From: Halopseudomonas oceani
Lineage (GTDB): Bacteria; Pseudomonadota; Gammaproteobacteria; Pseudomonadales; Pseudomonadaceae
DNA length: 64,000 bases
Direction: 5' to 3'
Assembly (NCBI RefSeq): GCF_002903165.1
Contig: NZ_PPSK01000012.1
Coordinates: 62,001 to 126,000 of the forward strand
Part shown: positions 15,376 to 55,800 of the stretch, piece by piece
How the letters are laid out: every line of letters starts with the position of its first letter
How positions within the stretch are numbered: position 1 is the stretch's first letter
The notes under the pieces: model-generated
What the model was told of the DNA's origin: nothing
What the model saw: the letters and a program-made list of their open reading frames with translations, nothing else
Database searches by the model: none
Translations under genes and position numbers: made by a program

Positions 15376-15497
15376 GTCGCACCACCGCATAGCACTGCCG
15401 CCAAACACCGCGCAAGCCGCTCACATTTCAGTCAGCCACCGCTGCAACCCCCACGCCAGCGCGCTTCGACTTTGACAATGTCAGCCAATGTCAAAAC

Positions 15498-15513
15498 TGG
15501 CACGGTCTCTGCT
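15498..15513 (+). promoter_or_regulatory. Probable sigma54 promoter of the urt operon
   Basis: TGGCACGGTCTCTGCT has GG and GC separated by exactly ten bases. The -24 half is perfect (TGGCACG); the -12 half has CTGCT for TTGCW, one mismatch. Transcription would start near 15524, about 110 bases before urtA. Confidence 0.6.
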
Positions 15514-15634
15514 CTGTTCATGGCACAGGCTGACTTGCTGGGGCGGTCTGCGCGGTCCTAGTGCGTCAACACCGGACCAGCAAGTATCGAGCAACAGCCG
15601 TGACTCCTGCCAATAACAGAGAAAGGAAAGGAAC

Positions 15635-16933: not shown

Positions 16934-16949
16934 TCAGCCATCCTCTGAC

Positions 16950-17002
16950 GGCGGGCCATGCGCCCGCCACGGCAACCGGGGCGACCATCACGCCCCGGTT
17001 GC
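16950..17002 (+). other. Two hairpins between urtA and urtB
   Basis: GGCGGGC/GCCCGCC (16950-16956 with 16962-16968), then a 12-bp perfect stem GCAACCGGGGCG/CGCCCCGGTTGC (16972-16983 with 16991-17002). Neither is followed by a T-run, so they probably protect the urtA 3' end or attenuate rather than terminate. Confidence 0.6.
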
Positions 17003-17035
17003 ACATTCAGTTCGATCTTCAATCAGGACGATGCC

Positions 17036-18682: not shown

Positions 18683-18727
18683 TCGCCGCCGCCGTTTCTT
18701 TTTACAACCGAATTGAACGAGGGAAGT

Positions 18728-19825
18728 ATGCTTACCCAACGACTGTTACTCAGTGATCGGGGCGGAATGCTGGTGCTGGGCCTAGTGCTGCTCACCACCA
18801 TCATCGTGCCGATTCTCAATCTGGCGGTGCCGACCGACTCACCGCTGTACGTTTCCAACTTTACCGTCGGCCTGCTCGGCAAGTTTCTCTGCTTTGCCCT
18901 GCTGGCCCTCTCGGTCGACCTGATCTGGGGCTACGCCGGCATCCTGTCGCTCGGCCACGGTGCCTTCTTCAGTCTGGGCGGCTACGCCATGGGCATGTAC
19001 CTGATGCGTCAGATCGGCGACCGCGGCGTCTACGGCCACCCCGAGCTGATGGACTTCATGGTGGTGCTCAACTGGGACAAGCTGCCGTGGTACTGGCAGG
19101 GCTTCGACATGTTCTGGTTCGCCATGCTGATGGTGCTGCTGGTGCCAGGTCTGCTGGCCCTGGTGTTCGGCTGGCTGGCGTTCCGCTCACGGGTGACCGG
19201 CGTCTACTTCGCCATCATCACCCAGGCGCTGACCTACGCCCTGATGCTCGCCTTCTTCCGTAACGAGATGGGCTTTGGCGGCAACAACGGCCTGAACGAC
19301 TTCAAGGAAATCCTCGGCTTTGATCTGGCGGCCAAGACCACCCGCGTCGGGCTGTTCGTCGCCTCCTCGATTGCCCTGATCCTCGGCTATATGGCCTGCC
19401 GCTACATCGTCACCTCACGCATGGGCCGGGTCATCATTGCCATCCGCGACGCCGAAAGCCGCACCCGCTTCAGCGGCTATCAGGTCGAAAGCTACAAGCT
19501 CTGGCTGTTTGTCTTCTCCGCCATGCTGGCGGCGGTGGCCGGCGCGCTCTATGTGCCGCAGGTCGGCATCATCAACCCGGGCGAGTTCTCCCCGCTCAAC
19601 TCCATCGAAATGGTGGTCTGGGTCGCAACCGGCGGCCGTGGCACCCTGTTCGGCGCCATCGTCGGCGCGTTCAGCGTCAACTACGCCAAGACCTTCTTCA
19701 CCACCTTCTCACCGGAAACCTGGCTGTTCATCCTCGGCGGTCTGTTCGTACTGGTAACCCTGCTGCTGCCCAAGGGCATCGTGGGCCTGTTCGACCGCTT
19801 CAGCCGCAAGGGAGACAAACAATGA
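18728..19825 (+). CDS. urtC: Urea ABC transporter, permease
   Basis: A 365-residue LivM-type permease with about nine hydrophobic helices. Segments such as LLALSVDLIWGYAGILSLGHGAFFSLGGYAMGMYLM and GEFSPLNSIEMVVWVATGGRGTLFGAIVGA are family signatures. The start at 18728 follows GAGGGAAGT. It overlaps urtD by four bases (ATGA), showing tight coupling with the ATPase genes. Confidence 0.94.
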   Translation: MLTQRLLLSDRGGMLVLGLVLLTTIIVPILNLAVPTDSPLYVSNFTVGLLGKFLCFALLALSVDLIWGYAGILSLGHGAFFSLGGYAMGMYLMRQIGDRGVYGHPELMDFMVVLNWDKLPWYWQGFDMFWFAMLMVLLVPGLLALVFGWLAFRSRVTGVYFAIITQALTYALMLAFFRNEMGFGGNNGLNDFKEILGFDLAAKTTRVGLFVASSIALILGYMACRYIVTSRMGRVIIAIRDAESRTRFSGYQVESYKLWLFVFSAMLAAVAGALYVPQVGIINPGEFSPLNSIEMVVWVATGGRGTLFGAIVGAFSVNYAKTFFTTFSPETWLFILGGLFVLVTLLLPKGIVGLFDRFSRKGDKQ

Positions 19826-20658
19826 ACCCGCTTGAACAACTGCGCGAAACCTGGCGCCGCGATCAGGTCTTCGACTTCGTCCAGCCCGCGCCGGACTTTT
19901 CCACCAAGGTCGACACCACCCACGGCCCGATCCTCTACGTGGAAGACGTCAGCGTGAGCTTTGACGGTTTCAAGGCGCTGAACAACCTGAACCTGTACAT
20001 CGATGACGGTGAGCTGCGCTGCATCATCGGCCCCAACGGTGCCGGCAAGACCACTATGATGGACGTCATCACCGGCAAGACCCGCCCGGACACCGGCAGC
20101 GTCTGGTTCGGCCAGCGCATGAACCTGCTCAAGCTCTCCGAGCACGAGATTGCCCGCGGCGGCATCGGCCGCAAGTTCCAGAAGCCGACCATCTTCGAGG
20201 CGCTCTCGGTGTTCGAGAATCTGGAACTGGCCACCGCCTCCAACAAGCACGTCTGGTACACGCTGAATAAAAGCCTGACCGGCGAACAGCTCGACCGCAT
20301 CGACGAAGTGCTCAAGCTGATCGGTCTGAAGGAGCAGTTCCGCATGGAAGCCGGCGCCCTCTCCCACGGCCAGAAGCAGTGGCTGGAGATCGGTATGTTG
20401 CTGATGCAGAACCCGCGCGTGCTGCTGGTCGACGAACCGGTCGCCGGCATGACCGGTGAAGAAGTCGAACACACCGCCGAACTGCTGACCTCGCTGGCCG
20501 GCCGTCACTCGGTCATCGTGGTCGAGCACGACATGGCGTTCGTGCGCTCCATCGCCCGCAAGGTGACCGTGCTGCACCAGGGCTCGGTGCTGGCCGAAGG
20601 CACCATGGATCAGGTGCAGAATGACCCGCGTGTGGTCGAAGTCTATTTGGGGGAATGA
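19822..20658 (+). CDS. urtD: Urea ABC transporter, ATP-binding protein
   Basis: A 278-residue cytoplasmic ATPase of the LivG type. Walker A GPNGAGKTT is at 70-78, the signature LSHGQKQWLEIGM near 184 and Walker B VLLVDEPVAGMT near 204. The N-terminal ~35 residues (RRDQVFDFVQPAPDFSTKV) precede the nucleotide-binding domain, as is usual in UrtD. It forms the heterodimeric motor with UrtE. Confidence 0.95.
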   Translation: MNPLEQLRETWRRDQVFDFVQPAPDFSTKVDTTHGPILYVEDVSVSFDGFKALNNLNLYIDDGELRCIIGPNGAGKTTMMDVITGKTRPDTGSVWFGQRMNLLKLSEHEIARGGIGRKFQKPTIFEALSVFENLELATASNKHVWYTLNKSLTGEQLDRIDEVLKLIGLKEQFRMEAGALSHGQKQWLEIGMLLMQNPRVLLVDEPVAGMTGEEVEHTAELLTSLAGRHSVIVVEHDMAFVRSIARKVTVLHQGSVLAEGTMDQVQNDPRVVEVYLGE

Positions 20659-20660
20659 CC

Positions 20661-21356
20661 ATGCTCAGCATTCAAGGCATCAACCAGTTCTACAACCAGA
20701 GCCACATCCTCTGGGATCTCGACCTCGAGCTGAAAGAAGGCAGCTGCAGCTGCCTGCTCGGCCGCAACGGCGTGGGCAAGACCACCCTGCTCAAATGCAT
20801 CACTGGCCTGCTGCCGGTGAAAAGCGGGCAGATCAGCCTGATGGGCCGCGACATCACCAAGCTCTCGACCGAAAACCGCGCCCGCTCCGGGATCGGATAC
20901 GTGCCGCAGGGGCGCGAGATCTTTCCGCTGCTGACGGTGGAAGAGAACCTGAAAATCTCACTCGGTGCCCGCCCCGACCGTGCCCGGCAGATTCCTGCGC
21001 ATATCTACGAGCTGTTCCCGGTACTCAAGGAAATGAAACATCGCCGTGGCGGCGACCTGTCCGGTGGTCAGCAACAGCAACTGGCGATTGGCCGGGCGCT
21101 GGTGCTTGACCCCAAGCTGCTGATTCTCGATGAGCCGACCGAAGGTATTCAGCCCAACATCGTGCGCGACATCAGCGACGTGATCCGCAAACTCAACACC
21201 GAACTGGGGCTGACCGTCCTGCTGGTCGAGCAGAAACTGCCGTTTGCCCGCCGGGCCGCGGAAAGCTTCTTCATCATGGAACGCGGGCGCATGGTCGCCA
21301 ACGGCCCGATGGATGAGCTGAACGACGACCTGATCCAGCGCTATCTGACCGTCTGA
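20661..21356 (+). CDS. urtE: Urea ABC transporter, ATP-binding protein
   Basis: A 231-residue LivF-type ATPase. Walker A LGRNGVGKTT is at about 33-42, the signature DLSGGQQQQLAIGRAL and Walker B LLILDEPTEGIQPNIV follow. The ATG at 20661 is preferred because GGGGGA ends six bases before it; ATG 20655, overlapping the urtD stop, would have no spacer. This is the last gene of the operon. Confidence 0.93.
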   Translation: MLSIQGINQFYNQSHILWDLDLELKEGSCSCLLGRNGVGKTTLLKCITGLLPVKSGQISLMGRDITKLSTENRARSGIGYVPQGREIFPLLTVEENLKISLGARPDRARQIPAHIYELFPVLKEMKHRRGGDLSGGQQQQLAIGRALVLDPKLLILDEPTEGIQPNIVRDISDVIRKLNTELGLTVLLVEQKLPFARRAAESFFIMERGRMVANGPMDELNDDLIQRYLTV

Positions 21357-43276: not shown

Positions 43277-43418
43277 GGTTACGCCCCCAAAAAACGCGCA
43301 CAAAAAAAGGCGTCCACAAACACAGCCGCTGATGCAGGTATGTTGGTGGACGCCTTTGCCCGAAAATTCTGTGTGGTCAGCGCTCCCACCATTGGGATAG
43401 CCGACACAGGGGGTTGGC

Positions 43419-43434
43419 AGCAAGGCCTGTGCCA
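43419..43434 (-). promoter_or_regulatory. Consensus sigma54 promoter of the porin/nitrate ABC operon
   Basis: On the minus strand TGGCACAGGCCTTGCT matches TGGCAC-R-N4-TTGCW at every specified position. The start site would be near 43408, about 130 bases before the porin ATG. Confidence 0.8.
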
Positions 43435-43532
43435 GAATTCTCAAGTCACTGATTAAATAGAATAAAGCCAATACCGAGCGGGTTAAACCTGTATCGAGCA
43501 TGCGTTTGCACGGTGCAGCGATCAGAAAGAGC

Positions 43533-43547: not shown

Positions 43548-43730
43548 GTACCTCTCCCTCTTTTGCCCGCTTCGACCATACGCCCGGGTTTGTCCGCCTA
43601 TAAGCCCGCCCGCCAGCCGCACCGGCATGACGCACCAAAAGCGAGCGAAGCACCACAACCGTGCACAGCTTCATTGCACCGCACTGGAGCCACTGCCTCT
43701 ATCCCGCGTGTTACGGGGCATTGCCCACTC

Positions 43731-43746
43731 TGGTCTGCATATTGCT
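43731..43746 (+). promoter_or_regulatory. Possible sigma54 promoter of the guanidine operon
   Basis: TGGTCTGCATATTGCT keeps GG-N10-GC and a perfect -12 TTGCT, but its -24 half is TGGTCT rather than TGGCAC. The start would be near 43757, which is correctly placed about 40 bases before the riboswitch. Confidence 0.4.
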
Positions 43747-43794
43747 TTGTACTCAGCGTTCGCACTCCGTACTACTGCGCAACTCACAATTTGC

Positions 43795-43897
43795 AAATAG
43801 AGCGCTAGGGTTCCGGCCGCTGTAGCGGTGCCTGGTCCGAGAGCACTCGACCTTTCAGACAAAGGTTACACGGCGGGATAAAAGCCCGGGAGACGAT
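43795..43897 (+). ncRNA. Guanidine-I (ykkC) riboswitch aptamer
   Basis: The conserved blocks of the ykkC subtype 1 aptamer are present in order: CTAGGGTTCCG (43805-43815), CTGGTCCGAGAG (43832-43843), a hairpin ACCTTT/AAAGGT (43850-43855 with 43861-43866), ACACGG (43868-43873) and GGGATAAAAGCCCGGGAGA (43875-43893). It lies about 50 bases before the ABC binding-protein gene. Guanidine is the known ligand and the motif normally turns expression on. The outer boundaries are approximate. Confidence 0.93.
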
Positions 43898-43912
43898 TGG
43901 CACCACTGCCAG

Positions 43913-43941
43913 GAGTGCTCCACGTGACATTGACTGAGAGG
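43913..43941 (+). promoter_or_regulatory. Possible expression platform of the guanidine riboswitch
   Basis: GAGTGCTC (43913-43920) is the exact complement of GAGCACTC in the aptamer (43841-43848). CTGAGAGG (43934-43941), which contains the presumed Shine-Dalgarno sequence of the next gene, can pair with CCTTTCAG (43851-43858) with one G-U pair. The latter bases form the aptamer hairpin when ligand is bound. No T-run follows, so control is more likely translational. Confidence 0.45.
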
Positions 43942-43947
43942 TTCCCG

Positions 43948-44991
43948 ATGAAAAGATTCTCCGCCCTGCTACTCAGCTCCCTGCTGCTGTCGACCGCCGC
44001 CCAGGCACAGGACAGCTTCAAGGTCTGCTGGTCGATCTACGCCGGCTGGATGCCCTGGGCCTACGGCGCCGAAAGCGGCATCGTCAAGAAATGGGCCGAC
44101 AAGTACGACATCAACATTGATGTGGTGCAGATCAACGATTACATCGAGTCCATCAACCAGTACAGCGCCGGCGAGTTCGATGCCTGCACCATGACCAATA
44201 TGGATGCGCTAACCATTCCGGCCGCTGGCGGCATCGACAGCACCGCGCTGATCGTTGGTGACTTCTCCAACGGCAACGACGGCATCGTGCTCAAGGGCGA
44301 AAGCGAGCTGGCCGCCATCAAGGGTCAGAACGTCAATCTGGTCGAGCTGAGCGTGTCCCACTACCTGCTGGCCCGCGCACTGGACTCGGTAGGTCTGAGT
44401 GAAGCCGATGTGCAGGTGGTCAACACCTCGGACGCCGACATGGTCGCTATCTACGGCACCGACGATGTCACCTCGGTCGCGACCTGGAACCCGCTGCTGA
44501 GCGAAATCAGCCAGCAACCGAACAGCACCGTGGTGTTCAACTCGGCGCAGATTCCGGGCGAAATCATCGACCTGCTGGTCATCAACACCGATACCCTCGG
44601 CGCACACCCTGAACTGGGCAAGGCACTGACCGGCGCCTGGTACGAAATCATGGCGACCATGAGCAGCGACAGCGAGCAGGGTGTCGCCGCCCGCAGCTAC
44701 ATGGCTGAAGCCTCCGGCACCGATCTGGCCGGTTACGAAGCTCAGCTCGCCGCGACCAAGATGTTCTATACCCCGGCCGCCGCACTGGAGCTGACCAACA
44801 GTGCGCAGCTCAAGCAAACCATGCAGTACGTTGCCGAGTTCTCCTTCGACCACGGTCTGCTGGGTGACGGCGCACCGGATGCCGGTTTCATCGGCGTGCA
44901 GATGCCCGCTGGTGACTACGGCGACAGCAGCAACCTGAAGCTGCGCTTTGACCCGACCTACATGCAGATGGCTGCCGACGGCGCGCTCTGA
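43948..44991 (+). CDS. Guanidine ABC transporter, substrate-binding protein (annotated in databases as urea-carboxylase-associated)
   Basis: A 347-residue exported binding protein of the nitrate/sulfonate class. The signal peptide is MKRFSALLLSSLLLSTAAQA; the mature part starts QDSFKVCWSIYAGWMPWAYGAESGIVKKWADKYDINIDVVQINDYIESINQYSAGEFDACTMTNMDAL, the pattern of the binding protein encoded with urea carboxylase. Its position directly behind a guanidine-I riboswitch implies guanidine as ligand. ATG 43948 has GAGAGG upstream; the longer frame from 43897 would put the riboswitch end into coding sequence. Confidence 0.88.
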   Translation: MKRFSALLLSSLLLSTAAQAQDSFKVCWSIYAGWMPWAYGAESGIVKKWADKYDINIDVVQINDYIESINQYSAGEFDACTMTNMDALTIPAAGGIDSTALIVGDFSNGNDGIVLKGESELAAIKGQNVNLVELSVSHYLLARALDSVGLSEADVQVVNTSDADMVAIYGTDDVTSVATWNPLLSEISQQPNSTVVFNSAQIPGEIIDLLVINTDTLGAHPELGKALTGAWYEIMATMSSDSEQGVAARSYMAEASGTDLAGYEAQLAATKMFYTPAAALELTNSAQLKQTMQYVAEFSFDHGLLGDGAPDAGFIGVQMPAGDYGDSSNLKLRFDPTYMQMAADGAL

Positions 44992-45037
44992 GCCCTGAAA
45001 CACACCGGGCGCAGTTGCGCGCCCCAGCGGGATGCAT

Positions 45038-45856
45038 ATGAAGCGACTGATCAATCTCACACCACCACCGGCCAGCCGGCTGTTCCTTGGCCTGCTGCCG
45101 TTCGCGCTGCTGTTGCTGCTGTATGTGATTGCATCGGACGCACGGCTGGCCGAGAACGCCAACGACAAGCTGCTGCCGGCGTTCAGCCAGATGGGTGAAG
45201 CCATTGACCGCATGGCGCTGGAGCCGAGCAAGCGCACCGGCGAATACCTGTTCTGGCAGGACACCGCCAGCAGCCTCAAGCGCCTCGGTCTGGGCGTGCT
45301 GATCGCCGCCGCCATCGGCCTGGCGCTGGGGCTGTTTACCGGCGCCCTGCCGCTGGTACACGCCGGGGTCAGCCCGCTGCTGACGGTAGTGTCACTGATA
45401 CCGCCGCTGGCGATTCTGCCGGTGCTGTTCATTCTGTTCGGGCTGGGTGAAGCCTCCAAGGTGATCCTGATCGCCATCGGCATCACCCCGTTCATCGCCC
45501 GCGACCTGCAGCGCCGCACCCAGGAAATCCCCAGCGAGCAACTGGTCAAGGCGCAGACCCTCGGCGCCAACACCAGCCAAATCATGGTCCGCGTGCTGCT
45601 GCCGCAACTGATGCCCAAGCTGATCGACGCCGTGCGTCTGTCGCTGGGTGCCGGCTGGCTGTTCCTGATCGCCGCCGAGGCCATCGCCGCCACCGACGGT
45701 CTGGGCTACCGCATCTTTCTGGTCCGTCGCTACATGTCGATGGACGTGATCCTGCCGTATGTCGCCTGGATCACCCTGCTGGCCTTCCTCTTCGACTGGC
45801 TGCTGGCGACCCTGTCGCGCCGCCTGTTCCCGTGGAACGCCCAAGGAGCCCACTGA
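45038..45856 (+). CDS. Guanidine ABC transporter, permease
   Basis: A 272-residue inner-membrane permease with a first helix LFLGLLPFALLLLLYVIA and five more in the BPD-type domain; the coupling loop is EQLVKAQTLGANTSQIMVRVLLPQLMPKLIDAVRLSLGAGWLFLIAAEA. ATG 45038 is preferred over 45032 because AGCGGG is then correctly spaced. It overlaps the ATPase start by one base. Partner of the binding protein upstream. Confidence 0.88.
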   Translation: MKRLINLTPPPASRLFLGLLPFALLLLLYVIASDARLAENANDKLLPAFSQMGEAIDRMALEPSKRTGEYLFWQDTASSLKRLGLGVLIAAAIGLALGLFTGALPLVHAGVSPLLTVVSLIPPLAILPVLFILFGLGEASKVILIAIGITPFIARDLQRRTQEIPSEQLVKAQTLGANTSQIMVRVLLPQLMPKLIDAVRLSLGAGWLFLIAAEAIAATDGLGYRIFLVRRYMSMDVILPYVAWITLLAFLFDWLLATLSRRLFPWNAQGAH

Positions 45857-46638
45857 TGATTGAAGTCAAGAACGTCGGCAAGAGCTACGACGGCAACCCA
45901 GTGCTGGAACGCTTGAACGTCACCGTCGCCGAAGGCGAGTTCGTCACCCTGGTCGGCGCCTCCGGCTGCGGCAAGAGCACCTTTTTGAAAATGCTGCTGG
46001 GCACCGAATCACCGACCAGCGGCGAGCTGCTGCTCGACGGCAAGCCGATTGCCTCCGAGCCCGGCCCGGATCGCGGCATCGTGTTTCAGCAGTACTCGGT
46101 GTTCCCGCACATGACCGTGCTGGAGAACGTCATGGCGGCGGTCGGCTTCGCCCAACGCGGCCTCACCGGCTACCTGTTCGGCAGCAAGCGCAAGCAGGCC
46201 CGGCAGGACGCCGAAGCGATTCTCACCGAGGTCGGCCTTGGCCACGCGCTGAAGAAGTACCCGCACGAACTGTCTGGCGGCATGAAGCAACGTCTGGCAA
46301 TTGCCCAGGCGCTGCTCGGCAAGCCGCGCATCCTGCTGCTGGACGAACCCTTCGGCGCACTCGATCCCGGCATCCGCGCCGACATGCACGAGCTGGTGCT
46401 GCGCCTGTGGCAGGAACACAAGCTGACCATCTTTATGGTCACCCACGACATCAAGGAAGGCTTTCACCTCGGCACCCGTCTGTGGGTGTTCGACAAGGTG
46501 CGGCATGACCCGCACGCACCGCAAGCCTTTGGCGCCACCATTACCTACGACCTGCCGATCGACCACCGCGCCCGGCAGCCGGCGCCGCAAACCACCGAAC
46601 AAACCATTGCCCCGCTGCTGGCCGAAGCCGCCAGCTGA
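45856..46638 (+). CDS. Guanidine ABC transporter, ATP-binding protein
   Basis: A 260-residue cytoplasmic ATPase. Walker A GASGCGKSTF near 36-45, signature LSGGMKQRLAIAQALL, Walker B ILLLDEPFGALDPGIR. The C-terminal part GTRLWVFDKVRHDPHAPQAFGATITYDLPID is typical of the ATPase linked to urea carboxylase genes. It starts at the stop codon of the permease gene (TGATG). Confidence 0.9.
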   Translation: MIEVKNVGKSYDGNPVLERLNVTVAEGEFVTLVGASGCGKSTFLKMLLGTESPTSGELLLDGKPIASEPGPDRGIVFQQYSVFPHMTVLENVMAAVGFAQRGLTGYLFGSKRKQARQDAEAILTEVGLGHALKKYPHELSGGMKQRLAIAQALLGKPRILLLDEPFGALDPGIRADMHELVLRLWQEHKLTIFMVTHDIKEGFHLGTRLWVFDKVRHDPHAPQAFGATITYDLPIDHRARQPAPQTTEQTIAPLLAEAAS

Positions 46639-46664
46639 GCCACCGAATCACGGAGACAAGGCAG

Positions 46665-47381
46665 ATGACGCTGAATACCTATACCACCGACATCCCCGGC
46701 GCCAGCCACTGGTCCCTGCGCGTACGCAAGGGCACCCTGATGCGCCTGACCGACCTGGCCGGCGACGCCAACGTTGGCATGCTGTTCTACAACCCGGAAA
46801 ACCTGCTGGAGCGCTACAACGCGCCCGACACCCTCAAGTGCCAGCACACCTTCAAACTGACCCGGGGCAACTGCCTGTACTCCGACATGGGCCGCATCTT
46901 CGCCTCCATCGTCGAAGACGATCTGGGCTGGCACGAAAGCGTCTGCGGCAACAGCAACGCCGCGCAGGTGGCCGAGCGCTGGGGCGCGCGTGACTACCAG
47001 AACGCCCGCAACGAATGGCACCAGAACGGCTACGACGCCTTCCTCGTCGAGCTGGCCAAATACGGCCTGGGCCGCGCCGACATGGCCGCCAACCTGAACC
47101 TGTTCAGCAAGGTCGCCACCGACGACGAAGGCCGCATGCAACTGGTCAGCGGCCACAGCAAGGCTGGCAGTCAGGTCGCCCTGCGTTTCGAAATGGACAC
47201 GCTGGTCGTGCTGCATACCTGCCCGCACCCGCTCAGCAACGCTGAAAGCTACCCATACACCCCGGTACGCATCGAGCTGAGCCAGGCCGCGCCGGTCAGT
47301 GATGACGACTTCTGCCGCAACTTCCGCCCGGAAAACCAGCGCGGCTTCCAGAACAACGCCCTGTACCACCTGGGCAAGTAA
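46665..47381 (+). CDS. DUF1989 protein, carboxyguanidine deiminase subunit (UAAP2-like)
   Basis: A 238-residue member of DUF1989, long called urea carboxylase-associated protein 2. Published work on guanidine degradation (Schneider and co-workers, 2020, from memory) showed the DUF1989 pair to be a carboxyguanidine deiminase, CgdAB. Visible features include [57 protein letters not shown] with a cysteine and [22 protein letters not shown]. It is followed by the second DUF1989 gene after 11 bases, as expected for a heteromeric enzyme. Which of the two is CgdA or CgdB is not decided here. Confidence 0.85.
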
Positions 47382-47392
47382 GCGAGGACACC

Positions 47393-48031
47393 ATGATCAA
47401 GCACAGCTCCCTGCTCCCCGAAAACGCCGCCTCGCGCACCACCATCGGCGCTGGCGATTACTACATCGGCATCGTCAAGGCCGGCCAGACCCTGCGTCTG
47501 CTGGATCTGGAAGGCAATCAGGCCGCCGACACCCTGTTCTTCAGCGCCGCCAATCCGGTCGAGCGTTACAGCGCCACCGACACCATCCGCGAACAGGGCA
47601 ACGTCTACCTGACCGCCGGTTCGGTAATCCGCTCAAATGAAAACAACCCGATGCTGGAAATCGTCGCCGACACCTGCGGCCGCCACGACACCCTCGGCGG
47701 CGCCTGCGCCAGCGAAAGCAACACCGTGCGCTACGACCTGGAAAAGCGCTGCATGCACTCGTGCCGTGACAGCTGGATGCTGGCCGTAGCGGAGAACCCG
47801 CAGTACGGCATCGGCAAGCGCGACATCACCCACAACATCAACTTCTTTATGAACGTCCCGGTTACCGCCGAAGGCGGCCTGACCTTTGAAGACGGCATAT
47901 CCGGCGCCGGCAAGTATGTCGAGCTGACCGCGCTGATGGACGTGGTGATCCTGATCTCCAACTGCCCGCAGCTGAACAACCCGTGCAACGGCTATAACCC
48001 GACGCCGGTAGAACTCCTCGTCTGGAACTAA
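47393..48031 (+). CDS. DUF1989 protein, carboxyguanidine deiminase subunit (UAAP1-like)
   Basis: A 212-residue DUF1989 protein, formerly urea carboxylase-associated protein 1. The pattern [67 protein letters not shown] and [23 protein letters not shown] has conserved cysteines and histidine likely to bind metal. In the proposed pathway it removes the imino group of carboxyguanidine to give allophanate and ammonia, together with the protein encoded upstream. It precedes the carboxylase by 89 bases. Confidence 0.87.
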
Positions 48032-48120
48032 GCAGCGGCGACGCAACGAGACACAACATCTTCAGTGGACGACCACTGTCGTAAGAAGCAGCCTGGGACG
48101 GCCCGGCAGAGGCTAGCGAC

Positions 48121-51100
48121 ATGTTCAACAAGGTTCTGATCGCCAACCGTGGCGCCATCGCCACCCGTATCATCCGCACCCTGCGCAAGCTCGGCGTCGG
48201 CTCCGTTGCCGTCTACGCCGAATGCGACGCCGACAGCCTGCATGTGCGGCTGGCCGACGAGGCCTACAGCCTCGGCGAAGGCGCTGCCGCCGACACCTAC
48301 CTGCAGGTCGATAAACTGCTGGCCATCGCCGCCGAAACCGGCGCCCAGGCCATCCATCCCGGTTACGGCTTCCTCAGCGAGAACGCCAACTTCGTGCGCC
48401 GCTGTGAGGCCGCCGGTGTCGCCTTCATCGGCCCGACGCCCGAACAGATGCTGGCCTTTGGTCTCAAGCACCGCGCCCGCGAGCTGGCCGAGCAGGCCAA
48501 TGTGCCGCTGCTGCCGGGCACCGACCTGCTGACCGATCTGGCTGCTGCCAAGGCAGAAGCCGCGCGTATCGGCTATCCGGTCATGCTCAAGAGCACCGCC
48601 GGTGGCGGCGGTATCGGCATGCAGCTGTGCCACAGTGAAGACGAGCTGTCCGGCGCCTTCGACAGCGTCAAGCGCCTTGGCGCCAGCAACTTTGCCGACG
48701 ATGGCGTGTTCCTGGAAAAATTCATCGCCCGCGCCCGGCATATCGAGGTACAGGTGTTTGCCGATGGCCAGGGCAACGCGCTGGCACTCGGTGAGCGCGA
48801 CTGCTCCAGCCAGCGCCGCAACCAGAAAGTCGTTGAAGAGTGCCCGGCACCGAACCTGAGCGACACGGTGCGCAGCGAGCTGCATGCGACCGCTGAGAAG
48901 CTGCTGTCCAGCGTCAGCTACCGCAACGCCGGAACCGTCGAATTTATCTACGACGCCGACAGCCACCAGTTCTACTTTCTTGAGGTGAACACCCGCCTGC
49001 AGGTTGAGCACGGCGTCACCGAAGAGGTCTACGGCGTTGATCTGGTCGAATGGATGGTGCGCCTTGCCGCCGGCGAAGAGCTCGACCTGAACGCCCGCCG
49101 CGCCAGTCTTGCGCCCAAGGGCCATTCCATTCAGGTACGCCTGTACGCCGAAGACCCGTTCCGCGACTTCCAGCCCTGCGCCGGCCTGCTCAGCGAAGTG
49201 GCCTTCCCGTCCGGTGACGGCATCCGCATCGACCACTGGATTGAGTCCGGGCTGGAAGTACCGCCCTACTTCGACCCCATGCTGGCCAAGGTTATTGTCC
49301 ACGCTGAAGACCGCGCTGCGGCGCTGACCAAACTGCAGAACACCCTGGACGCGACCCGCCTGTACGGCAGCGAAACCAACCTCGACTACCTGCGTGCGCT
49401 GACCCGCGATCCGGCGCTGCTGGCTGGCGAGGTCACCACCCGCTACCTCAACAGCTTCCGCTTTCAGCCGGCGCGCATCGACGTGCTGGCCGGCGGCACC
49501 CAGACCACCATTCAGGACTTTCCGGGCCGCACCGGCAGCTGGGATGTCGGCGTACCGCCGTGCGGTCCGTTTGACAGCTACGCCTTCCGCCTCGGCAACC
49601 GCCTGCTGAACAACCCGGCCGACGCCGCCGGGCTGGAAATCACCCTGCAGGGCCCGACCCTGCGCTTTGCCAGCGCCAGCCAGATCGTGCTGAGCGGCGC
49701 CGCGATCGACGCCAAACTGGATGACCAGCCGATTGCGCCCTGGCAGGTGATCGACGTCGCTGCTGGCCAGACTCTGACCCTCGGCCGCATCAAGGACGCC
49801 GGTGCCCGCGCCTATCTGGCGGTGCTCGGCGGCCTGCAATGCCCGGATTATCTGGGCTCCAAGTCGACCTTTACCCTCGGCCAGTTCGGTGGCCACAACG
49901 GCCGCGCGCTGCGCACCGGTGACGTGCTGCACCTGAGTGCCGCAGGCAGCCCGGTCGCGGCGGCAGAAGTACCGAGCGAGCTGCGCCCGGCGATCAGCAA
50001 CCAGTGGGAGCTGCGGGTAATCTACGGCCCGCACGGCGCGCCGGACTTCTTTACCGGCAAGGACATCGACAGCTTCTTCGCCACCGACTGGGAGATTCAC
50101 TACAACTCCAGCCGCACCGGCGTACGTCTCATCGGCCCGAAACCGGAATGGGCGCGCAAGGACGGCGGCGAAGCCGGCCTGCACCCGTCCAATATCCACG
50201 ACAACGCCTACGCCTTCGGCACCGTCGACTTCACCGGCGACATGCCGGTGATCCTCGGCCCGGACGGCCCGTCACTGGGTGGCTTCGTCTGCCCCGCGAC
50301 CGTGATTACCGCCGACCTGTGGAAGCTCGGCCAGCTGCGCGCCGGCGACACCGTGCGCTTCGTACCGGTCAGCATCGACCAGGCGGTCGCACTGGAAGCC
50401 GCGCAGATCGAGCAGATCAACGCGCTGGCCGCCAAGCCGGTTGAATGGCAACCGGTGGCGGCAGACACGCCGATTCTCAAGCGCCTGCCCGCCGAGCAGT
50501 TCGGCGACGAGATCGTCTACCGCGCCGCCGGCGACCACTTCCTGCTGGTCGAGTACGGCGAGCAGATGCTGGATATCCGCCTGCGTTTCCGCGCCCACGC
50601 GCTGATGCAGTGGCTGCAGCAGAACCCGGTGGCAGGTCTGCGTGAACTGACACCGGGCATCCGCTCACTGCAGGTGCATTTCGACAGCCAGCAATTGAGC
50701 CATGACGCCCTGCTTGATCACCTGCTCAAGGCCGAGCAGGCGCTGTCGGAACGCCTCAATGAACTGGCGGTGCCCTCGCGCATCGTGCACATCCCGCTGT
50801 CATGGGATGACGAGGCCTGCCAGCTGGCGATCGAAAAATACACCCAGTCGGTGCGCAAGAACGCGCCCTGGTGCCCGAGCAACCTGGAGTTCATCCGCCG
50901 CATCAACGGCCTGGACAGCATCGACGACGTCAAGAAGGTGCTGTTCGAGGCGTCCTATCTGGTCATGGGCCTGGGCGATGTTTACCTCGGCGCGCCGGTG
51001 GCTACACCGACCGACCCGCGCCACCGCCTGGTGACCACCAAGTACAACCCGGCGCGCACCTGGACCGCCGAGAACTCGGTCGGCATCGGCGGCTCCTACC

Positions 51101-51735
51101 TCTGCGTCTACGGTATGGAAGGCCCCGGCGGCTATCAGTTCGTCGGCCGTACCCTGCAGATGTGGAACCGCTACCGCCAGACCCGCGAGTTCAGCAAACC
51201 GTGGCTGCTGCGCTTCTTCGACCAGATCCGTTTCTACGAAGTCAGCCACGAGGAGCTGCAGCAGATTCGCCGCGACTTCCCGCAGGGCCGCTACCCGCTG
51301 CGCATCGAGGAAAGCCAGTTCAGCCAGGCCGAACACGAAGCCTTTATTGCCAACAACGCCGACGACATCGACGCCTTCAAGCAGCAGCGCAACGCGGCGT
51401 TCGCCGAAGAACTGCGCCAGTGGCATGCCAACGGCCAGTTCAACTTCGAAAGCGAGGAGCTGGAAAGCAGCGACGAGGATGTCAGCTGGCCGGAAGACAG
51501 CGTCGGCGTCGACAGCCCAGTATCCGGCAGTCTGTGGCAGGCCGAGGTCAAGGTCGGTGATACCGTCAAGGCCGGGCAAACCCTGCTGATTCTCGAATCA
51601 ATGAAGATGGAGATCCCGTTGCAGGCGCCGTGCGATGGCGTGGTAACCCACGTGCTGCAGCAGCCCGGTGGGCGGGTACAGGCCGGTCAGCCGCTGGTGG
51701 TGCTGCGCGACGAGGCATTGGAGACCGTCGCCTGA
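48121..51735 (+). CDS. Guanidine carboxylase (biotin-dependent, urea carboxylase family)
   Basis: A 1204-residue ATP- and biotin-dependent enzyme. Domains: biotin carboxylase about 1-450 (MFNKVLIANRGAIATRII, HPGYGFLSENANF, ATP loop KSTAGGGGIGM, EVNTRLQVEHGVTEE), the KipA/KipI-type carboxyltransferase about 455-1040 (TIQDFPGRTG, PCGPFDSYAFRLGNRLL, HPSNIHDNAYAFGTVDFTGD) and the biotin carrier at the end with ESMKMEIPL. D703 in VDFTGD occupies a position that is asparagine in true urea carboxylases, as far as I recall, and favours guanidine. The riboswitch and the DUF1989 pair support the same substrate. The expected allophanate hydrolase does not follow. Confidence 0.88.
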   Translation: MFNKVLIANRGAIATRIIRTLRKLGVGSVAVYAECDADSLHVRLADEAYSLGEGAAADTYLQVDKLLAIAAETGAQAIHPGYGFLSENANFVRRCEAAGVAFIGPTPEQMLAFGLKHRARELAEQANVPLLPGTDLLTDLAAAKAEAARIGYPVMLKSTAGGGGIGMQLCHSEDELSGAFDSVKRLGASNFADDGVFLEKFIARARHIEVQVFADGQGNALALGERDCSSQRRNQKVVEECPAPNLSDTVRSELHATAEKLLSSVSYRNAGTVEFIYDADSHQFYFLEVNTRLQVEHGVTEEVYGVDLVEWMVRLAAGEELDLNARRASLAPKGHSIQVRLYAEDPFRDFQPCAGLLSEVAFPSGDGIRIDHWIESGLEVPPYFDPMLAKVIVHAEDRAAALTKLQNTLDATRLYGSETNLDYLRALTRDPALLAGEVTTRYLNSFRFQPARIDVLAGGTQTTIQDFPGRTGSWDVGVPPCGPFDSYAFRLGNRLLNNPADAAGLEITLQGPTLRFASASQIVLSGAAIDAKLDDQPIAPWQVIDVAAGQTLTLGRIKDAGARAYLAVLGGLQCPDYLGSKSTFTLGQFGGHNGRALRTGDVLHLSAAGSPVAAAEVPSELRPAISNQWELRVIYGPHGAPDFFTGKDIDSFFATDWEIHYNSSRTGVRLIGPKPEWARKDGGEAGLHPSNIHDNAYAFGTVDFTGDMPVILGPDGPSLGGFVCPATVITADLWKLGQLRAGDTVRFVPVSIDQAVALEAAQIEQINALAAKPVEWQPVAADTPILKRLPAEQFGDEIVYRAAGDHFLLVEYGEQMLDIRLRFRAHALMQWLQQNPVAGLRELTPGIRSLQVHFDSQQLSHDALLDHLLKAEQALSERLNELAVPSRIVHIPLSWDDEACQLAIEKYTQSVRKNAPWCPSNLEFIRRINGLDSIDDVKKVLFEASYLVMGLGDVYLGAPVATPTDPRHRLVTTKYNPARTWTAENSVGIGGSYLCVYGMEGPGGYQFVGRTLQMWNRYRQTREFSKPWLLRFFDQIRFYEVSHEELQQIRRDFPQGRYPLRIEESQFSQAEHEAFIANNADDIDAFKQQRNAAFAEELRQWHANGQFNFESEELESSDEDVSWPEDSVGVDSPVSGSLWQAEVKVGDTVKAGQTLLILESMKMEIPLQAPCDGVVTHVLQQPGGRVQAGQPLVVLRDEALETVA

Positions 51736-51737
51736 GA

Positions 51738-51791
51738 AAAAAAGATGCTTTCTGGTGCTGAATAAGCATCAGAAAGCATCAGAAAGCATCA
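51738..51791. repeat. Hairpin with decamer repeats after the carboxylase gene
   Basis: GATGCTTTCTGGTGCT (51744-51759) pairs with AGCATCAGAAAGCATC (51765-51780) as a 16-bp stem with one G-U. The right arm is part of a direct repeat AGCATCAGAA at 51765, 51775 and partly 51785. Seven A precede the stem, so on the minus strand it is a good intrinsic terminator; on the plus strand it has no T-run. It lies where allophanate hydrolase is normally encoded. Confidence 0.65.
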
Positions 51792-51889: not shown

Positions 51890-53320
51890 ATGCTATCCGC
51901 CCTCAGCGACCTGCTGTGGAGCAAGGTCCTCATTGCTCTGCTGGTCGGCATCGGTATCTGGTTCACCTTCGCTACCCGCTTCGTGCAGTTTCGTTACTTC
52001 GGCAAGATGTTCGGCATTCTCACTGCCAACCATCATGAGGCGGACGGACGCCACCTCAGCTCCTTTCAAGCCCTGATCCTGTCGGTTGCCGGCCGGGTTG
52101 GCGGCGGCAATATCGCCGGTGTCGCGGTGGCTATCACCCTGGGTGGCCCTGGCGCCATCTTCTGGATGTGGGTTGTCGGCCTGATGGGCATGGCAACCAG
52201 CTTTATCGAATGTACCCTCGCCCAGCTGTACAAGACCGCCGAACCGGATGGTGCCTACCGTGGCGGCCCGGCCCACTACATCGAACGCGGTCTGGGCCGT
52301 AACTGGAAGTGGCTGGCGATGGTTTACTCGGTGCTGCTGCTGGTGACCTTCGGTATCGGCTTTATCGCCCTGCAGTCCTACGCAGTCGCCACCTCGCTGC
52401 AGGATGCGTTCAGCATTCCGCTGTACTACAGCGGTATCGGTCTGGCACTGGTGGTCGGCCTGATCATCTTCGGCGGCGTCAAACGTATCGCTCAGGTCGC
52501 TGAGGTGCTGGTGCCGATCATGGCGGGCGGTTACCTGCTGATCGCGGTGGTGGTACTGGGTCTGAACTTCAGCGAGATTCCCGCGACCCTCAAGCTGATT
52601 GTGGAAAGCGCCTTCGGCATTGGCCCGGTGGTCGGCGGCGGTATCGGCGCGGCAATCCTGATGGGCGTCAAGCGCGGCCTGTTCTCCAACGAAGCGGGTC
52701 TCGGCAGCGCGCCCAACGTGGCGGCGGTGGCCTTCGTCCCGCACCCGGCCAATCAGGGTGTGGTGCAGTCGTTCTCGGTCTTCATCGACACCATCGTGCT
52801 GTGCACCTGCACCGCGCTGATCATTCTGATGGGCACCGCCTATGACCCGACGCTGGGCGACGCCAGTCAGGGCGTGGCCTTGACCCAGGCCTCGCTGGCA
52901 ACCCATATCGGCGAATGGGGCCGTGTGTTCGTCAGCATTGCCATGCTGCTGTTCGGCTTCAGCACCGTGCTCTACAACTACTACCTCGGTGAGAACAGCG
53001 TCAGCTACCTGACCACCGGCCGCAGCAACGAGTTCGTCATGAACGGCTTTCGGGTGGTGGTGATCTGCCTGTGCTGTCTGGGCGCGATCATGGATCTGGG
53101 TACCGTATTCGGCTTCGCCGACCTGACCATGGGCCTGCTGGCACTGGTCAACCTGGTTGCCCTGACCCTGCTGTTCAAGACCGGCAAGCGCGTGCTCGCC
53201 GACTACGACCGACAGCTCAAGAGCGGCAACAAGACGCCGACCTTCCACGCTGAAGAGTACGCCGACCTGGATCTGGACCACGAGTCCTGGCCGGCCAGCC
53301 AGCGCAAAGACAACCACTGA
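51890..53320 (+). CDS. AGCS-family sodium/amino-acid symporter
   Basis: A 476-residue inner-membrane protein with about eleven helices. GRVGGGNIAGVAVAITLGGPGAIFWMWVVGLMGMATSFIECTLAQLYK is the family signature near the N terminus, and KRGLFSNEAGLGSAPNVAAVA is the second. It imports alanine, glycine or glutamine/asparagine with sodium. Since aspartase and asparaginase follow within 60 bases on the same strand, asparagine or aspartate-linked amino acids are plausible substrates. AAAGGAG precedes the ATG. Confidence 0.92.
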   Translation: MLSALSDLLWSKVLIALLVGIGIWFTFATRFVQFRYFGKMFGILTANHHEADGRHLSSFQALILSVAGRVGGGNIAGVAVAITLGGPGAIFWMWVVGLMGMATSFIECTLAQLYKTAEPDGAYRGGPAHYIERGLGRNWKWLAMVYSVLLLVTFGIGFIALQSYAVATSLQDAFSIPLYYSGIGLALVVGLIIFGGVKRIAQVAEVLVPIMAGGYLLIAVVVLGLNFSEIPATLKLIVESAFGIGPVVGGGIGAAILMGVKRGLFSNEAGLGSAPNVAAVAFVPHPANQGVVQSFSVFIDTIVLCTCTALIILMGTAYDPTLGDASQGVALTQASLATHIGEWGRVFVSIAMLLFGFSTVLYNYYLGENSVSYLTTGRSNEFVMNGFRVVVICLCCLGAIMDLGTVFGFADLTMGLLALVNLVALTLLFKTGKRVLADYDRQLKSGNKTPTFHAEEYADLDLDHESWPASQRKDNH

Positions 53321-53374
53321 CCCCTGCCCCGAGCGCCGGATCCCCGGCGCTCCGTTTCCTCTGGAAGCACACCC

Positions 53375-54774
<1,400 letters not shown>

Positions 54775-54778
<4 letters not shown>

Positions 54779-55800
54779 CCAGCGAGGTGCTGATCCTGCA
54801 CACCGGCGGTACTATCGGCATGGTGCCCGGCCCACACGGGCTGGCACCGGCCCCCGGTTTGCGCCAGCGCATCGAACAGCAACTGGGCAGCAGCCTGCAA
54901 CAGCTGCCCGCCTTTGACTTGCTGGAAATCGATCCGCTAATCGACAGCGCCGACCTCACGCCCGGTCACTGGCAACAACTGGCCGGTCTGCTGGCCGAGC
55001 ATTGGGATCGTTACCGCGGCTTCATCATTCTGCACGGCACCGACACCATGGCCTATAGCGCCGCGGCGCTGTCGTTCATGCTCGGCGCCAGCGAACGCAA
55101 CGTGCTGTTCACCGGCTCGCAGGTGCCGCTCGGGCTGCCGCGCAGCGACGCGGTAGCGCACCTGCAGGCGGCGCTGCAACTGGCAGCCGGGCCGCGCCTG
55201 CGCAATGTCGGCCTGGTGTTCAACAACCGACTGCTCAACGGCAGTCGCCTGCGCAAGGTCAGCAGCCAGCAGTTTCAGGCCTTCGACACCCCCAATGCGG
55301 CGCCGCTGGCCGAACTCAATATCCGCCCGCAGCTCCATGCCGAGCGACTTCTTGGCGAAGCCATCGCCAGCCGTCATCCGCGCGAAGCCGCCGCCCTCGA
55401 CTTCCAGCCGGGCGCGGTTGCCATGCTCTGCCTGCATCCCTCGATGCCGGCAGTCCTGTACGACGCGATTCTGGCCGACAACGCCTGCAAAGCGGTGGTG
55501 CTGCAGAGCTTTGGTGCCGGCAACGTACCCAGTCGCGACCCGGCGTTCGCCGCCTTCATCAAACGCGCCAGCGCCCGCAACAAGGTGGTGGTCAACGTGA
55601 CCCAGTGCCTGCAGGGCGGCATCAGCCCCGGCGCCTATGCCGCGAGCGCAGGTCTGGTGAATCAGGGTGTGCTGAGTGGCGGTGACATGACGCCGGAAGC
55701 GGCGTTCTGCAAACTGCACTGGCTGCTCGCGGGTGGCCGCGACGCGGCAGCCGTGATCCGCGACTGGTCACTCAACCTGAGCGACGAACGGTCGATCTAA
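54775..55800 (+). CDS. L-asparaginase, cytoplasmic type
   Basis: A 341-residue asparaginase without a signal peptide. The nucleophile threonine lies in HTGGTIGMVPG (T13) and the second active-site motif is LHGTDTMAYSA (87-97); GSQVPLG and VVLQSFGAGNVP follow. The absence of an export signal and the length fit type I (AnsA-like). It ends the AGCS-aspA-asparaginase set and its stop overlaps the convergent regulator gene by four bases. Confidence 0.92.

What the first reader, a model, noticed from the sequence alone, without database searches (positions are those of the whole stretch)
43795..51735. Guanidine-I riboswitch in front of a 'urea carboxylase' operon: a guanidine-utilisation system
The sequence between 43795 and 43897 carries all conserved blocks of the ykkC subtype 1 aptamer. 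It precedes an ABC importer, two DUF1989 proteins and a biotin carboxylase. By established knowledge, guanidine carboxylase plus the DUF1989 pair (carboxyguanidine deiminase) turn guanidine into allophanate and ammonia. Routine annotation would call this urea carboxylation, which is probably wrong; urea is already served by urtABCDE at 15.6 kb.
Basis: partly seen in the sequence, partly recalled or inferred. Interest (0 to 1): 0.75.

Follow-up and report, generated by a model that had tools for sequence, protein, structure and literature searches.

The report
Guanidine-feeding operon under two riboswitches
This relative of Pseudomonas carries a known kind of gene set, switched on by guanidine through RNA sensors, that very probably takes up guanidine and breaks it down for nitrogen, although standard annotation calls it urea degradation.

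Summary
Rfam places a full-length Guanidine-I aptamer at 43794-43894 (92.7 bits, threshold 63), followed by an ABC importer, two DUF1989 proteins and a 1204-aa biotin carboxylase. The carboxylase has Asp703 and Asp953 at the two positions that published work uses to recognise guanidine carboxylases. Of 54 related loci fetched, 47 have Asp at the first position and seven, of urea-carboxylase type, have Asn. The guanidine interpretation is therefore supported; this kind of operon is already published.

Additions: (1) a second, Guanidine-II-like sensor at 48063-48106 before the carboxylase, below Rfam's cut-off but conserved in relatives; (2) the Guanidine-I leader looks like a translational switch, its P2 strand pairing with the ribosome-binding site; (3) the operon lacks allophanate hydrolase, which this genome encodes on another contig; (4) the carboxylase groups with those of other families.

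Outside the window, the genome's second Guanidine-I riboswitch heads a widespread operon (riboswitch in 72 of 81 loci) encoding a homologue of the methylguanidine lyase MgdL, with a desaturase-type membrane protein where MgdH would be expected. It is a candidate undescribed guanidine-releasing route. No experiment was run.

The parts
43794..43894 (+). Guanidine-I (ykkC) riboswitch aptamer
   Evidence: Rfam RF00442, 92.7 bits, gathering 63, E 1.8e-15
43849..43943 (+). Proposed expression platform: P2 5' strand GACCTTTCAG (43849-43858) can pair either with the aptamer's own P2 3' strand or with CTGAGAGGTT (43934-43943), which holds the Shine-Dalgarno sequence before ATG 43948
   Evidence: 10 contiguous pairs; present in the minimum-energy fold of the whole leader and of 43846-43950, a stretch chosen for it, z -3.91, 0 of 200 shuffles as good; no terminator-like site in 43550-44000; across 28 leaders the own pairing score exceeds 400 of 400 permutations
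43948..44991 (+). periplasmic substrate-binding protein of the putative guanidine importer (annotated as urea SBP)
   Evidence: TIGR03427 554 bits
45032..45856 (+). ABC importer permease
   Evidence: TauC/NtrB-like, below equivalog cut-offs
45832..46638 (+). ABC importer ATPase
   Evidence: NtrCD-like, below cut-off
46665..47381 (+). UAAP1, DUF1989; putative carboxyguanidine deiminase subunit (CgdA)
   Evidence: TIGR03425 332 bits; the name CgdA is recalled and inferred
47393..48031 (+). UAAP2, DUF1989; putative carboxyguanidine deiminase subunit (CgdB)
   Evidence: TIGR03424 326 bits; the name CgdB is recalled and inferred
48063..48106 (+). Guanidine-II-like (mini-ykkC) riboswitch: two hairpins with ACGA and ACGG loops; 14 nt lie between it and the carboxylase start codon
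   Evidence: RF01068 26.8 bits, below gathering 32; double hairpin in 37 of 45 CgdB-linked loci and 0 of 7 urea-carboxylase-type loci, 0 of 1040 shuffles
48121..51735 (+). guanidine carboxylase (Gca), 1204 aa: biotin carboxylase, carboxyltransferase and biotin carrier parts in one chain; no allophanate hydrolase domain
   Evidence: TIGR02712 1871 bits; D703 and D953; biotin motif ESMKME
51744..51780 (+). imperfect inverted repeat after gca, possible end of the transcript; L180 and L182 have a fuller stem followed by TTTT at this place
   Evidence: sequences printed, read by eye; the terminator scan did not flag it on the + strand

Best explanation
A guanidine-inducible operon for using guanidine as a nitrogen source. 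Without guanidine, the 5' leader folds so that the P2 strand at 43849-43858 covers the ribosome-binding site of the first gene; guanidine binding closes the aptamer's own P2 and frees it (an ON switch of translation; inferred). A second sensor before gca gates the carboxylase separately (inferred). The ABC importer brings guanidine in; Gca makes carboxyguanidine with ATP, bicarbonate and biotin; the two DUF1989 proteins (CgdA/CgdB) deiminate it to allophanate and ammonia; an allophanate hydrolase encoded on contig C4, outside the operon and without a guanidine sensor found beside it, finishes the job (gene identities supported by sequence; the enzymology is that of the cited papers and recall).
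For: Riboswitch. Gene families. Carboxylase signature residues; 47 D versus 7 N across 54 fetched loci; all 45 D loci with a readable start have CgdB and all 7 N loci lack it. Guanidine-II-like hairpins conserved at the same place; same place as the in-line-probed Gd-II of Vreelandella boliviensis (passages). Leader switch. Allophanate hydrolase: one gene over cut-off in the genome, on C4. Among 37 genus genomes 28 have a hydrolase over cut-off and all 28 have a guanidine- or urea-type carboxylase; the 29th carboxylase genome, G451, has the hydrolase in two pieces; the 8 genomes without a carboxylase have none over cut-off, G463 a partial one. The own genome has one carboxylase of this type only, so the hydrolase most likely serves this operon. 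Urea has its own importer and urease.
Against: No enzyme, binding or growth data. The Guanidine-II match is below Rfam's gathering score; the fold of 48050-48135 prefers another structure (z -0.90) and that of 48060-48110 shows the hairpins but is no better than shuffles (z -0.77). The full-leader fold has only a modest z of -1.87, and the fold of the aptamer alone does not show the bound form. The published view of a related Gd-I leader is transcriptional, by a terminator. The hydrolase on C4 is 77% identical to those paired with N-type carboxylases, not to those paired with gca, so its link to this pathway rests on co-occurrence. Genus genomes are related and a few are incomplete, so the Fisher values overstate independence.
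Confidence: 0.93

Rival explanations
1. A urea carboxylase operon, as routine annotation says: urea is imported, carboxylated to allophanate and hydrolysed.
For: NCBIfam names the binding protein, the carboxylase and the DUF1989 pair after urea; plasmid relatives are annotated uca.
Against: Asp, not Asn, at the residue that separates the two enzymes; DUF1989 pair and two guanidine sensors. None of the 7 N-type carboxylase loci has CgdB or the hairpins; allophanate hydrolase lies beside the N-type enzyme in L145 and L146 and, by coordinates, in L170, L171 and L172, but not visibly in L173 and L175. urtABCDE and urease are present.
Confidence: 0.03
2. The operon mainly detoxifies guanidine, nitrogen gain being secondary.
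For: Guanidine sensors also control exporters (passages of PMC12186494).
Against: An importer, not an exporter, is encoded first; the window also holds nitrate-type and urea importers.
Confidence: 0.04
3. The Guanidine-I leader acts by transcription termination rather than on translation.
For: Stated as presumed for the V. boliviensis Gd-I leader.
Against: No terminator-like site in 43550-44000; a strong helix over the ribosome-binding site instead, with locus-specific matching across leaders.
Confidence: 0.2
4. The carboxylase's natural substrate is a substituted guanidine such as methylguanidine.
For: The published Gd-II binds methylguanidine as well as guanidine.
Against: In that system methylguanidine is first demethylated, and guanidine enters the carboxylase pathway; no gene of the window operon was recognised as MgdH or MgdL.
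Confidence: 0.05

Closest known systems
gca/cgdAB operon of Vreelandella boliviensis (PMC12508155, passages)
   Same: Gd-I at the front, three ABC importer genes, cgdA and cgdB, Gd-II between cgdB and gca (the exact place of the importer genes was not seen)
   Different: There mgdH, mgdL and allophanate hydrolase follow gca; here the next gene is an AGCS carrier and the hydrolase is on another contig. The Gd-I leader here looks translational, there it is presumed to be a terminator switch.
Guanidine carboxylase pathway of Pseudomonas syringae DC3000 (named as model organism in PMC11410670, passage)
   Same: ABC importer and the guanidine carboxylase pathway genes in one neighbourhood
   Different: The window carboxylase is 61-63% identical to most gca of its own family and groups with gca of other families. 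The DC3000 sequence itself was not compared.
Ectopseudomonas guguanensis G3 'operon IV' (PMC13296017, passages)
   Same: A second 'uca' with guanidine-I riboswitches and importer genes, suggested there to be a guanidine carboxylase, with atzF kept elsewhere
   Different: There atzF is still paired with a urea carboxylase gene; here it stands alone and no second carboxylase is left.
Urea carboxylase - allophanate hydrolase (urea amidolyase), PDB 5i8i / 3va7 (K. lactis, organism of 5i8i recalled)
   Same: homologous carboxylase over its whole length
   Different: Asn at position 1330; in the N-type relatives no CgdB and no Guanidine-II hairpins.

Membership tests
Guanidine-I riboswitch (RF00442) | Covariance-model score over gathering threshold, full length | tested here: met
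   92.7 vs 63 bits, 1-107/107
Guanidine-I riboswitch (RF00442) | Binds guanidine | not testable with these tools
   needs in-line probing
Guanidine-II riboswitch (RF01068) | Score over Rfam's gathering threshold | tested here: not met
   26.8 vs 32 bits
Guanidine-II riboswitch (RF01068) | Two G+C-rich hairpins with ACGR loops close to the ribosome-binding site of a guanidine gene (PMC5486947, passages) | tested here: met
   CAGTGG-ACGA-CCACTG and CTGGG-ACGG-CCCGG, 14 nt apart, 14 nt before ATG 48121
Guanidine-II riboswitch (RF01068) | Conserved structure in relatives | tested here: met
   37 of 45 CgdB-linked loci have both hairpins (five or more pairs each), the other 8 at least one of four or more pairs; 0 of 7 N-type loci; 0 of 1040 shuffles. 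57 cells with changes on both sides in 27 sequences, but those sequences were chosen for having the pairs
Guanidine carboxylase (Gca) | Asp at K. lactis 1330 | tested here: met
   D703 aligns with N1330 of 5i8i (counted by hand)
Guanidine carboxylase (Gca) | Asp at K. lactis 1584 | tested here: met
   D953
Guanidine carboxylase (Gca) | Prefers guanidine to urea | not testable with these tools
   enzyme assay needed
Carboxyguanidine deiminase CgdAB | Two adjacent DUF1989 proteins of the UAAP1 and UAAP2 types | tested here: met
   TIGR03425 and TIGR03424 over cut-off; the UAAP-to-Cgd equation is recalled; PMC11410670 defines CgdA and CgdB by a tree of PF09347, which was not built here
Carboxyguanidine deiminase CgdAB | Heteromer active on carboxyguanidine | not testable with these tools
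   -
Complete guanidine carboxylase pathway | Allophanate hydrolase in the operon | tested here: not met
   next gene after gca is an AGCS carrier at 51890
Complete guanidine carboxylase pathway | Allophanate hydrolase in the genome | tested here: met
   C4:225771-227438, 823 bits, cut-off 511
Urea carboxylase | Asn at K. lactis 1330 | tested here: not met
   Asp
MgdL lyase family (second operon, contig C25, protein X) | Sequence homology to MgdL-type proteins and catalytic D-x-R (D49, R51 in print) | tested here: met
   X versus the L215 MgdL-type protein 32.6% identity, E 1e-21; D-x-R in all 15 aligned; the L215 protein has D49 and R51. The V. boliviensis sequence itself was not fetched, so homology to it is indirect
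MgdL lyase family (second operon, contig C25, protein X) | Paired with a 2OG dioxygenase MgdH | tested here: not met
   the operon has an FA_desaturase-family protein and no 2OG oxygenase among the genes scanned
MgdL lyase family (second operon, contig C25, protein X) | Cleaves N-(hydroxymethyl)guanidine | not testable with these tools
   enzyme assay needed

The most novel reading that the evidence does not exclude
The genome holds a two-storey guanidine economy. Its second Guanidine-I riboswitch (contig C25) heads an operon, conserved in Pseudomonas, Stutzerimonas, Halopseudomonas and, in shorter forms, Paraburkholderia and other genera, that releases guanidine from a larger N-alkyl guanidine: a desaturase-type membrane di-iron hydroxylase (replacing the 2OG enzyme MgdH) hydroxylates the carbon next to the guanidine nitrogen, and an MgdL-family barrel protein splits the hemiaminal into guanidine and an aldehyde. 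The guanidine then induces and feeds the window's operon. The creatininase-type, biuret-hydrolase-type, lactonase-type and SDR enzymes of the operon would prepare the substrate or clear the other product.
Probability: 0.5. Interest if true: 0.7.

Novelty: new member of a known kind. Interest (0 to 1): 0.42.

Why it matters
For the finding itself: it corrects a urea label to guanidine, adds a second sensor that Rfam's cut-off hides, and shows a pathway whose last enzyme has left the operon and is supplied by a stand-alone gene of urea-carboxylase type. A search for Halopseudomonas with guanidine listed one paper, a taxonomic description that I did not open. For the linked operon on C25: the biological source of guanidine is called an open question in PMC12186494 (passages); a widespread, guanidine-riboswitch-led operon with an MgdL-type lyase and a different hydroxylase is a directly testable candidate source.

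Tried and rejected
Urea carboxylation: rejected on the signature residue, gene company and sensors. Transcription terminator after the aptamer: none found. Guanidine sensor at the C4 allophanate hydrolase: no Rfam match at E up to 0.1 in the 19 kb of L012. MgdH-MgdL in the window operon: not recognised among its genes; the own genome's best matches to an MgdH-type protein are 37% identical at most and lie on other contigs than C12 and C25. Rfam P11 sRNA match at 43309-43446 minus: 27.2 bits against 70, not pursued. PDB sequence search for the C25 desaturase-like protein: no match at E up to 0.1. Foldseek of the X model: weak barrel matches only, best E 2e-4 to a lipocalin-like protein and 3.8e-4 to yeast YLR301w; this agrees with the Pfam HRI1 hint (19.4 bits, below cut-off 27; that YLR301w is HRI1 is recalled) but does not show function. 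Loci L176-L178 and L184-L189, fetched in search of mgdL, held none that I recognised.

Weak spots of my own tests. Loci for the carboxylase comparison were capped at the best 30 per call, so the 54 are not all that exist; further N-type-like matches in G061, G412, G393 and G448 were listed but not fetched. One search picked a wrong start codon for several leaders, the window among them (score 8 instead of the 10-pair match), which works against the result; leaders without a picked start were dropped and identical ones merged before the count, leaving 28. One search used 40 distinct leaders of 43 found, one of them a spurious second motif in L019; leaders of the C25 type mostly do not show the pairing. 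The stretch folded was chosen because of the helix. Model R1 was built from 24 leaders, two from this genome and 22 of the 29 loci L013-L041. The scan found 165 relatives of the desaturase-like protein and kept the best 80. The 72 of 81 count includes this genome; of the nine without a hit, L058, L094 and L107 have under 500 bases upstream of the desaturase gene, L121 has 1.6 kb with a hydrolase in it, and L063, L098, L116, L117 and L120 have enough sequence and still lack it. Rows for one search were 27 of 30 distinct double-hairpin sequences and had been selected for pairing, so the 100% paired is by construction. The tree used 46 of 48 chosen loci (L101 and L108 fell out), and one locus of another family (L186) grouped elsewhere. 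Of the 37 genus genomes, the desaturase count (13) uses matches of 78% identity or more; seven weaker matches at 44-49% were left out, one of them in G458, a genome without a carboxylase match.
Full report
What was claimed and what is there. Rfam confirms the aptamer at 43794-43894, 92.7 bits against 63, full length, and it is the only gathering-level match in the window. NCBIfam identifies the substrate-binding protein (TIGR03427), UAAP1, UAAP2 and a 1204-aa carboxylase (TIGR02712, 1871 bits), these four over their curated cut-offs, with a permease and an ATPase between. Urea is served otherwise: urtABCDE is complete at 15635-21353 and a urease alpha subunit lies on contig C4.

Guanidine or urea. 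PMC11410670 (passage seen) separates guanidine from urea carboxylases by Asp at K. lactis position 1330, and requires Asp at 1584. Counting by hand along the alignment to 5i8i, the window enzyme has D703 at position 1330, where 5i8i has Asn, and D953 at 1584. As an internal control I read the same positions in 54 carboxylase loci of the family and genus (L122-L175, the best 30 of each of two calls, overlapping): 47 have D and 7 have N at the first, all 54 have D at the second. Of the 52 with a readable start, all 45 D loci have a CgdB gene alongside, and all 7 N loci lack it. Of the N loci, L145 and L146 carry allophanate hydrolase beside the carboxylase, and so by coordinates do L170, L171 and L172; for L173 and L175 it was not seen. 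So residue, gene company and sensors sort together, and the window falls on the guanidine side.

A second sensor. A permissive Rfam scan gave RF01068 (Guanidine-II) at 48063-48106, 26.8 bits, under the gathering score of 32 (E 0.0012 when only 301 bases are searched). It is two hairpins with ACGA and ACGG loops, 14 nt before the carboxylase start codon. PMC5486947 (passages) describes the class as G+C-rich helices with ACGR loops near ribosome-binding sites. Looking 150 nt upstream of the carboxylase in relatives, both hairpins with at least five pairs are present in 37 of 45 CgdB-linked loci, at least one of four or more pairs in the other 8, none in 7 of 7 N-type loci, and a double hairpin in 0 of 1040 dinucleotide shuffles. 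Stems differ by compensating changes (57 cells in 27 sequences; these sequences were selected for pairing). V. boliviensis has a probed Gd-II between cgdB and gca, binding guanidine and methylguanidine (passages). Against it: the fold of 48050-48135 prefers another structure. I regard the element as a Guanidine-II riboswitch that the cut-off hides, while noting that the Rfam criterion was not met.

How the first switch may work. No terminator-like site follows the aptamer. Instead the P2 5' strand GACCTTTCAG (43849-43858) matches CTGAGAGGTT (43934-43943), ten pairs covering the ribosome-binding site before ATG 43948. The fold of 43846-43950 is dominated by it (-40.7 kcal/mol, z -3.91, 0 of 200 shuffles; the stretch was chosen for the helix); the whole leader has z -1.87. 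Since the same strand is needed for P2 of the bound aptamer, the two forms exclude each other. In 28 leaders from the order, each leader's P2 strand fits its own start region better than those of other leaders (mean score 16.3 against 13.2, 0 of 400 permutations as high; an earlier and looser version, 18.4 against 15.7 in 20 swaps). Leaders are related, so this is supporting, not conclusive. The V. boliviensis paper presumes a transcriptional mechanism for its Gd-I; here translation seems more likely.

The missing last enzyme. The next gene after gca is an AGCS carrier, followed by aspartase- and asparaginase-type genes. The genome's only allophanate hydrolase over cut-off is on contig C4. Among ten neighbouring ORFs scanned there is no carboxylase; the one directly downstream matches a phosphonate-type regulator model below its cut-off (GntR family is recalled). 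No Rfam guanidine sensor was found in the 19 kb around it. The hydrolase is 77% identical to those beside the N-type carboxylases in L145 and L146, and 49% to those beside gca in L179 and L181. In close relatives with the same gca type, G450 and G444 have a hydrolase directly after gca and G451 has one starting 120 bp after it by coordinates. In this genome, G417, G438, G443, G445 and G456 it lies elsewhere (coordinates). In 37 genus genomes a hydrolase over cut-off occurs in 28, all of which have a guanidine- or urea-type carboxylase; the only carboxylase genome without one, G451, has it in two pieces; the 8 genomes without any carboxylase match have none over cut-off, though G463 has a partial match at a contig edge. 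The simplest reading is that the operon's own hydrolase was lost and a stand-alone gene of urea-carboxylase type took over. PMC13296017 (passages) describes a related state in Ectopseudomonas guguanensis, where atzF is still paired with a urea carboxylase gene.

Origin. The window carboxylase is 88-98% identical to those of eight genus relatives but 61-63% to the D-type enzymes of other members of the genus and of most of the family. In a FastTree tree of 46 carboxylases it groups with L211 from another family (80% identity, support 0.997) inside a clade of nine loci from other families (support 0.993), away from the rest of its own family. Transfer within the order, or unequal retention of two old copies, would explain this. 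Named relatives of the C25 desaturase gene, 99% and 97% identical, are Halopseudomonas aestusnigri and H. pachastrellae, so the organism is probably a Halopseudomonas.

Outside the window: the second Guanidine-I riboswitch. It lies at C25:18932-19036 (84.9 bits) and heads an operon of eleven genes: substrate-binding protein, FA_desaturase-family protein, two SDRs, EamA transporter, creatininase (TIGR04448 382 bits, cut-off 235), an isochorismatase-fold enzyme nearest to biuret hydrolase, an MBL-fold lactonase-like enzyme, a protein X, and an ABC permease and ATPase. A scan of GTDB genomes with the desaturase-like protein found 165 relatives, of which the best 80 loci were kept. The gene order is largely the same in Pseudomonas, Stutzerimonas and Halopseudomonas, shorter forms occur elsewhere, and gca genes lie nearby in many. 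A Guanidine-I aptamer precedes the operon in 72 of 81 loci, own genome included. In the genus, 13 of 37 genomes have this desaturase at 78% identity or more, and all 13 have a guanidine-type carboxylase; 12 guanidine-carboxylase genomes lack it and 12 genomes have neither. The dependence runs one way, as expected if the operon makes guanidine; the genomes are related, so the p of 0.002 is optimistic.

Protein X. Its profile (A3, 30 sequences) finds relatives in 21 of 390 genomes of the order. I fetched wider stretches for seven of these (L210-L216), none of which matched the desaturase. In the four where the neighbouring ORF was scanned (L210, L211, L214, L215) it is a Pfam 2OG-Fe(II) oxygenase; L212 has a neighbour of the same type by its HxD...H motif, and L213 and L216 have a neighbouring ORF that looks like part of one (by eye). 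Four of the seven (L210, L211, L214, L215) lie beside gca; L215 has the order gca, dioxygenase, X-type protein, like gca-mgdH-mgdL in V. boliviensis but with no hydrolase match in the stretch. The L215 protein carries D49 and R51, the numbering of the pair shown by mutation to matter in MgdL, and X aligns with it at 32.6% identity, E 1e-21, with D41-x-R43 conserved in all 15 sequences aligned. The X model is confident (pLDDT 91) and rich in strands, the pair lying on strand 38-44; structural matches are weak and of barrel type. I infer that X is an MgdL-family protein and that the desaturase-like protein does the hydroxylation that MgdH does elsewhere; the MgdL of V. boliviensis itself was not at hand. 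GntB, a guanitoxin-pathway arginine hydroxylase, is a very weak relative of the desaturase-like protein (25.6 bits, cut-off 380). The substrate is unknown; creatinine- or creatine-derived compounds are a guess from the creatininase.

In print. Searches for guanidine with riboswitch and creatininase (none), at least two of ykkC, creatininase, desaturase, guanidine with riboswitch and desaturase, methylguanidine with riboswitch (12 of 13 listed), and at least two of alkylguanidine, guanidine riboswitch, guanidine carboxylase, creatinine gave no title or abstract start that describes such an operon; most listed papers were not opened. Only open-licence PMC text was searched, supplements were not available, and Sinn 2021 (Mol. 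Microbiol.), which surveys these operons, was not read and may mention it. Of PMC12508155 I saw passages, the outline and the Discussion; of PMC11410670, PMC12186494, PMC5486947, PMC13296017 and PMC2211319, passages only.

Verdict. The more novel lead is the C25 operon.

Noticed in passing
L003:1729-11037 (contig C25, about 9728-19036, minus strand): Second Guanidine-I riboswitch heading an eleven-gene operon with an FA_desaturase-family protein, creatininase, biuret-hydrolase-like enzyme and an MgdL-family protein X; riboswitch present in 72 of 81 loci with the desaturase gene.
   Followed up: yes
L012:9631-11457 (contig C4): Stand-alone allophanate hydrolase of urea-carboxylase type, apparently serving the window's operon.
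   Followed up: yes
window:48121-51735: Carboxylase belongs to a clade found in other families of the order, not to the usual gca of its own family; possible horizontal transfer.
   Followed up: partly
   Followed up: partly
L210 (G377:C14): Three Guanidine-I riboswitches within about 6 kb of one guanidine gene cluster, each before a transporter gene.
   Followed up: no
window:38666-42013 and 51890-55800: The operon is flanked by a nitrate-type ABC transporter set with a porin (minus strand) and by AGCS carrier, aspartase-type and asparaginase-type genes: a nitrogen neighbourhood.
   Followed up: no
window:43309-43446 (minus): Sub-threshold, full-length Rfam match to Pseudomonas sRNA P11, 27.2 bits against 70, inside the longest porin ORF but probably upstream of its true start; not tested further.
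   Followed up: no
window:48077-48082 and 48116-48121: TGTCGT after the first Guanidine-II hairpin can pair with GCGACA up to the first base of the gca start codon in the predicted fold of 48050-48135, and is conserved in the six window-type loci aligned; possible switching partner.
   Followed up: partly
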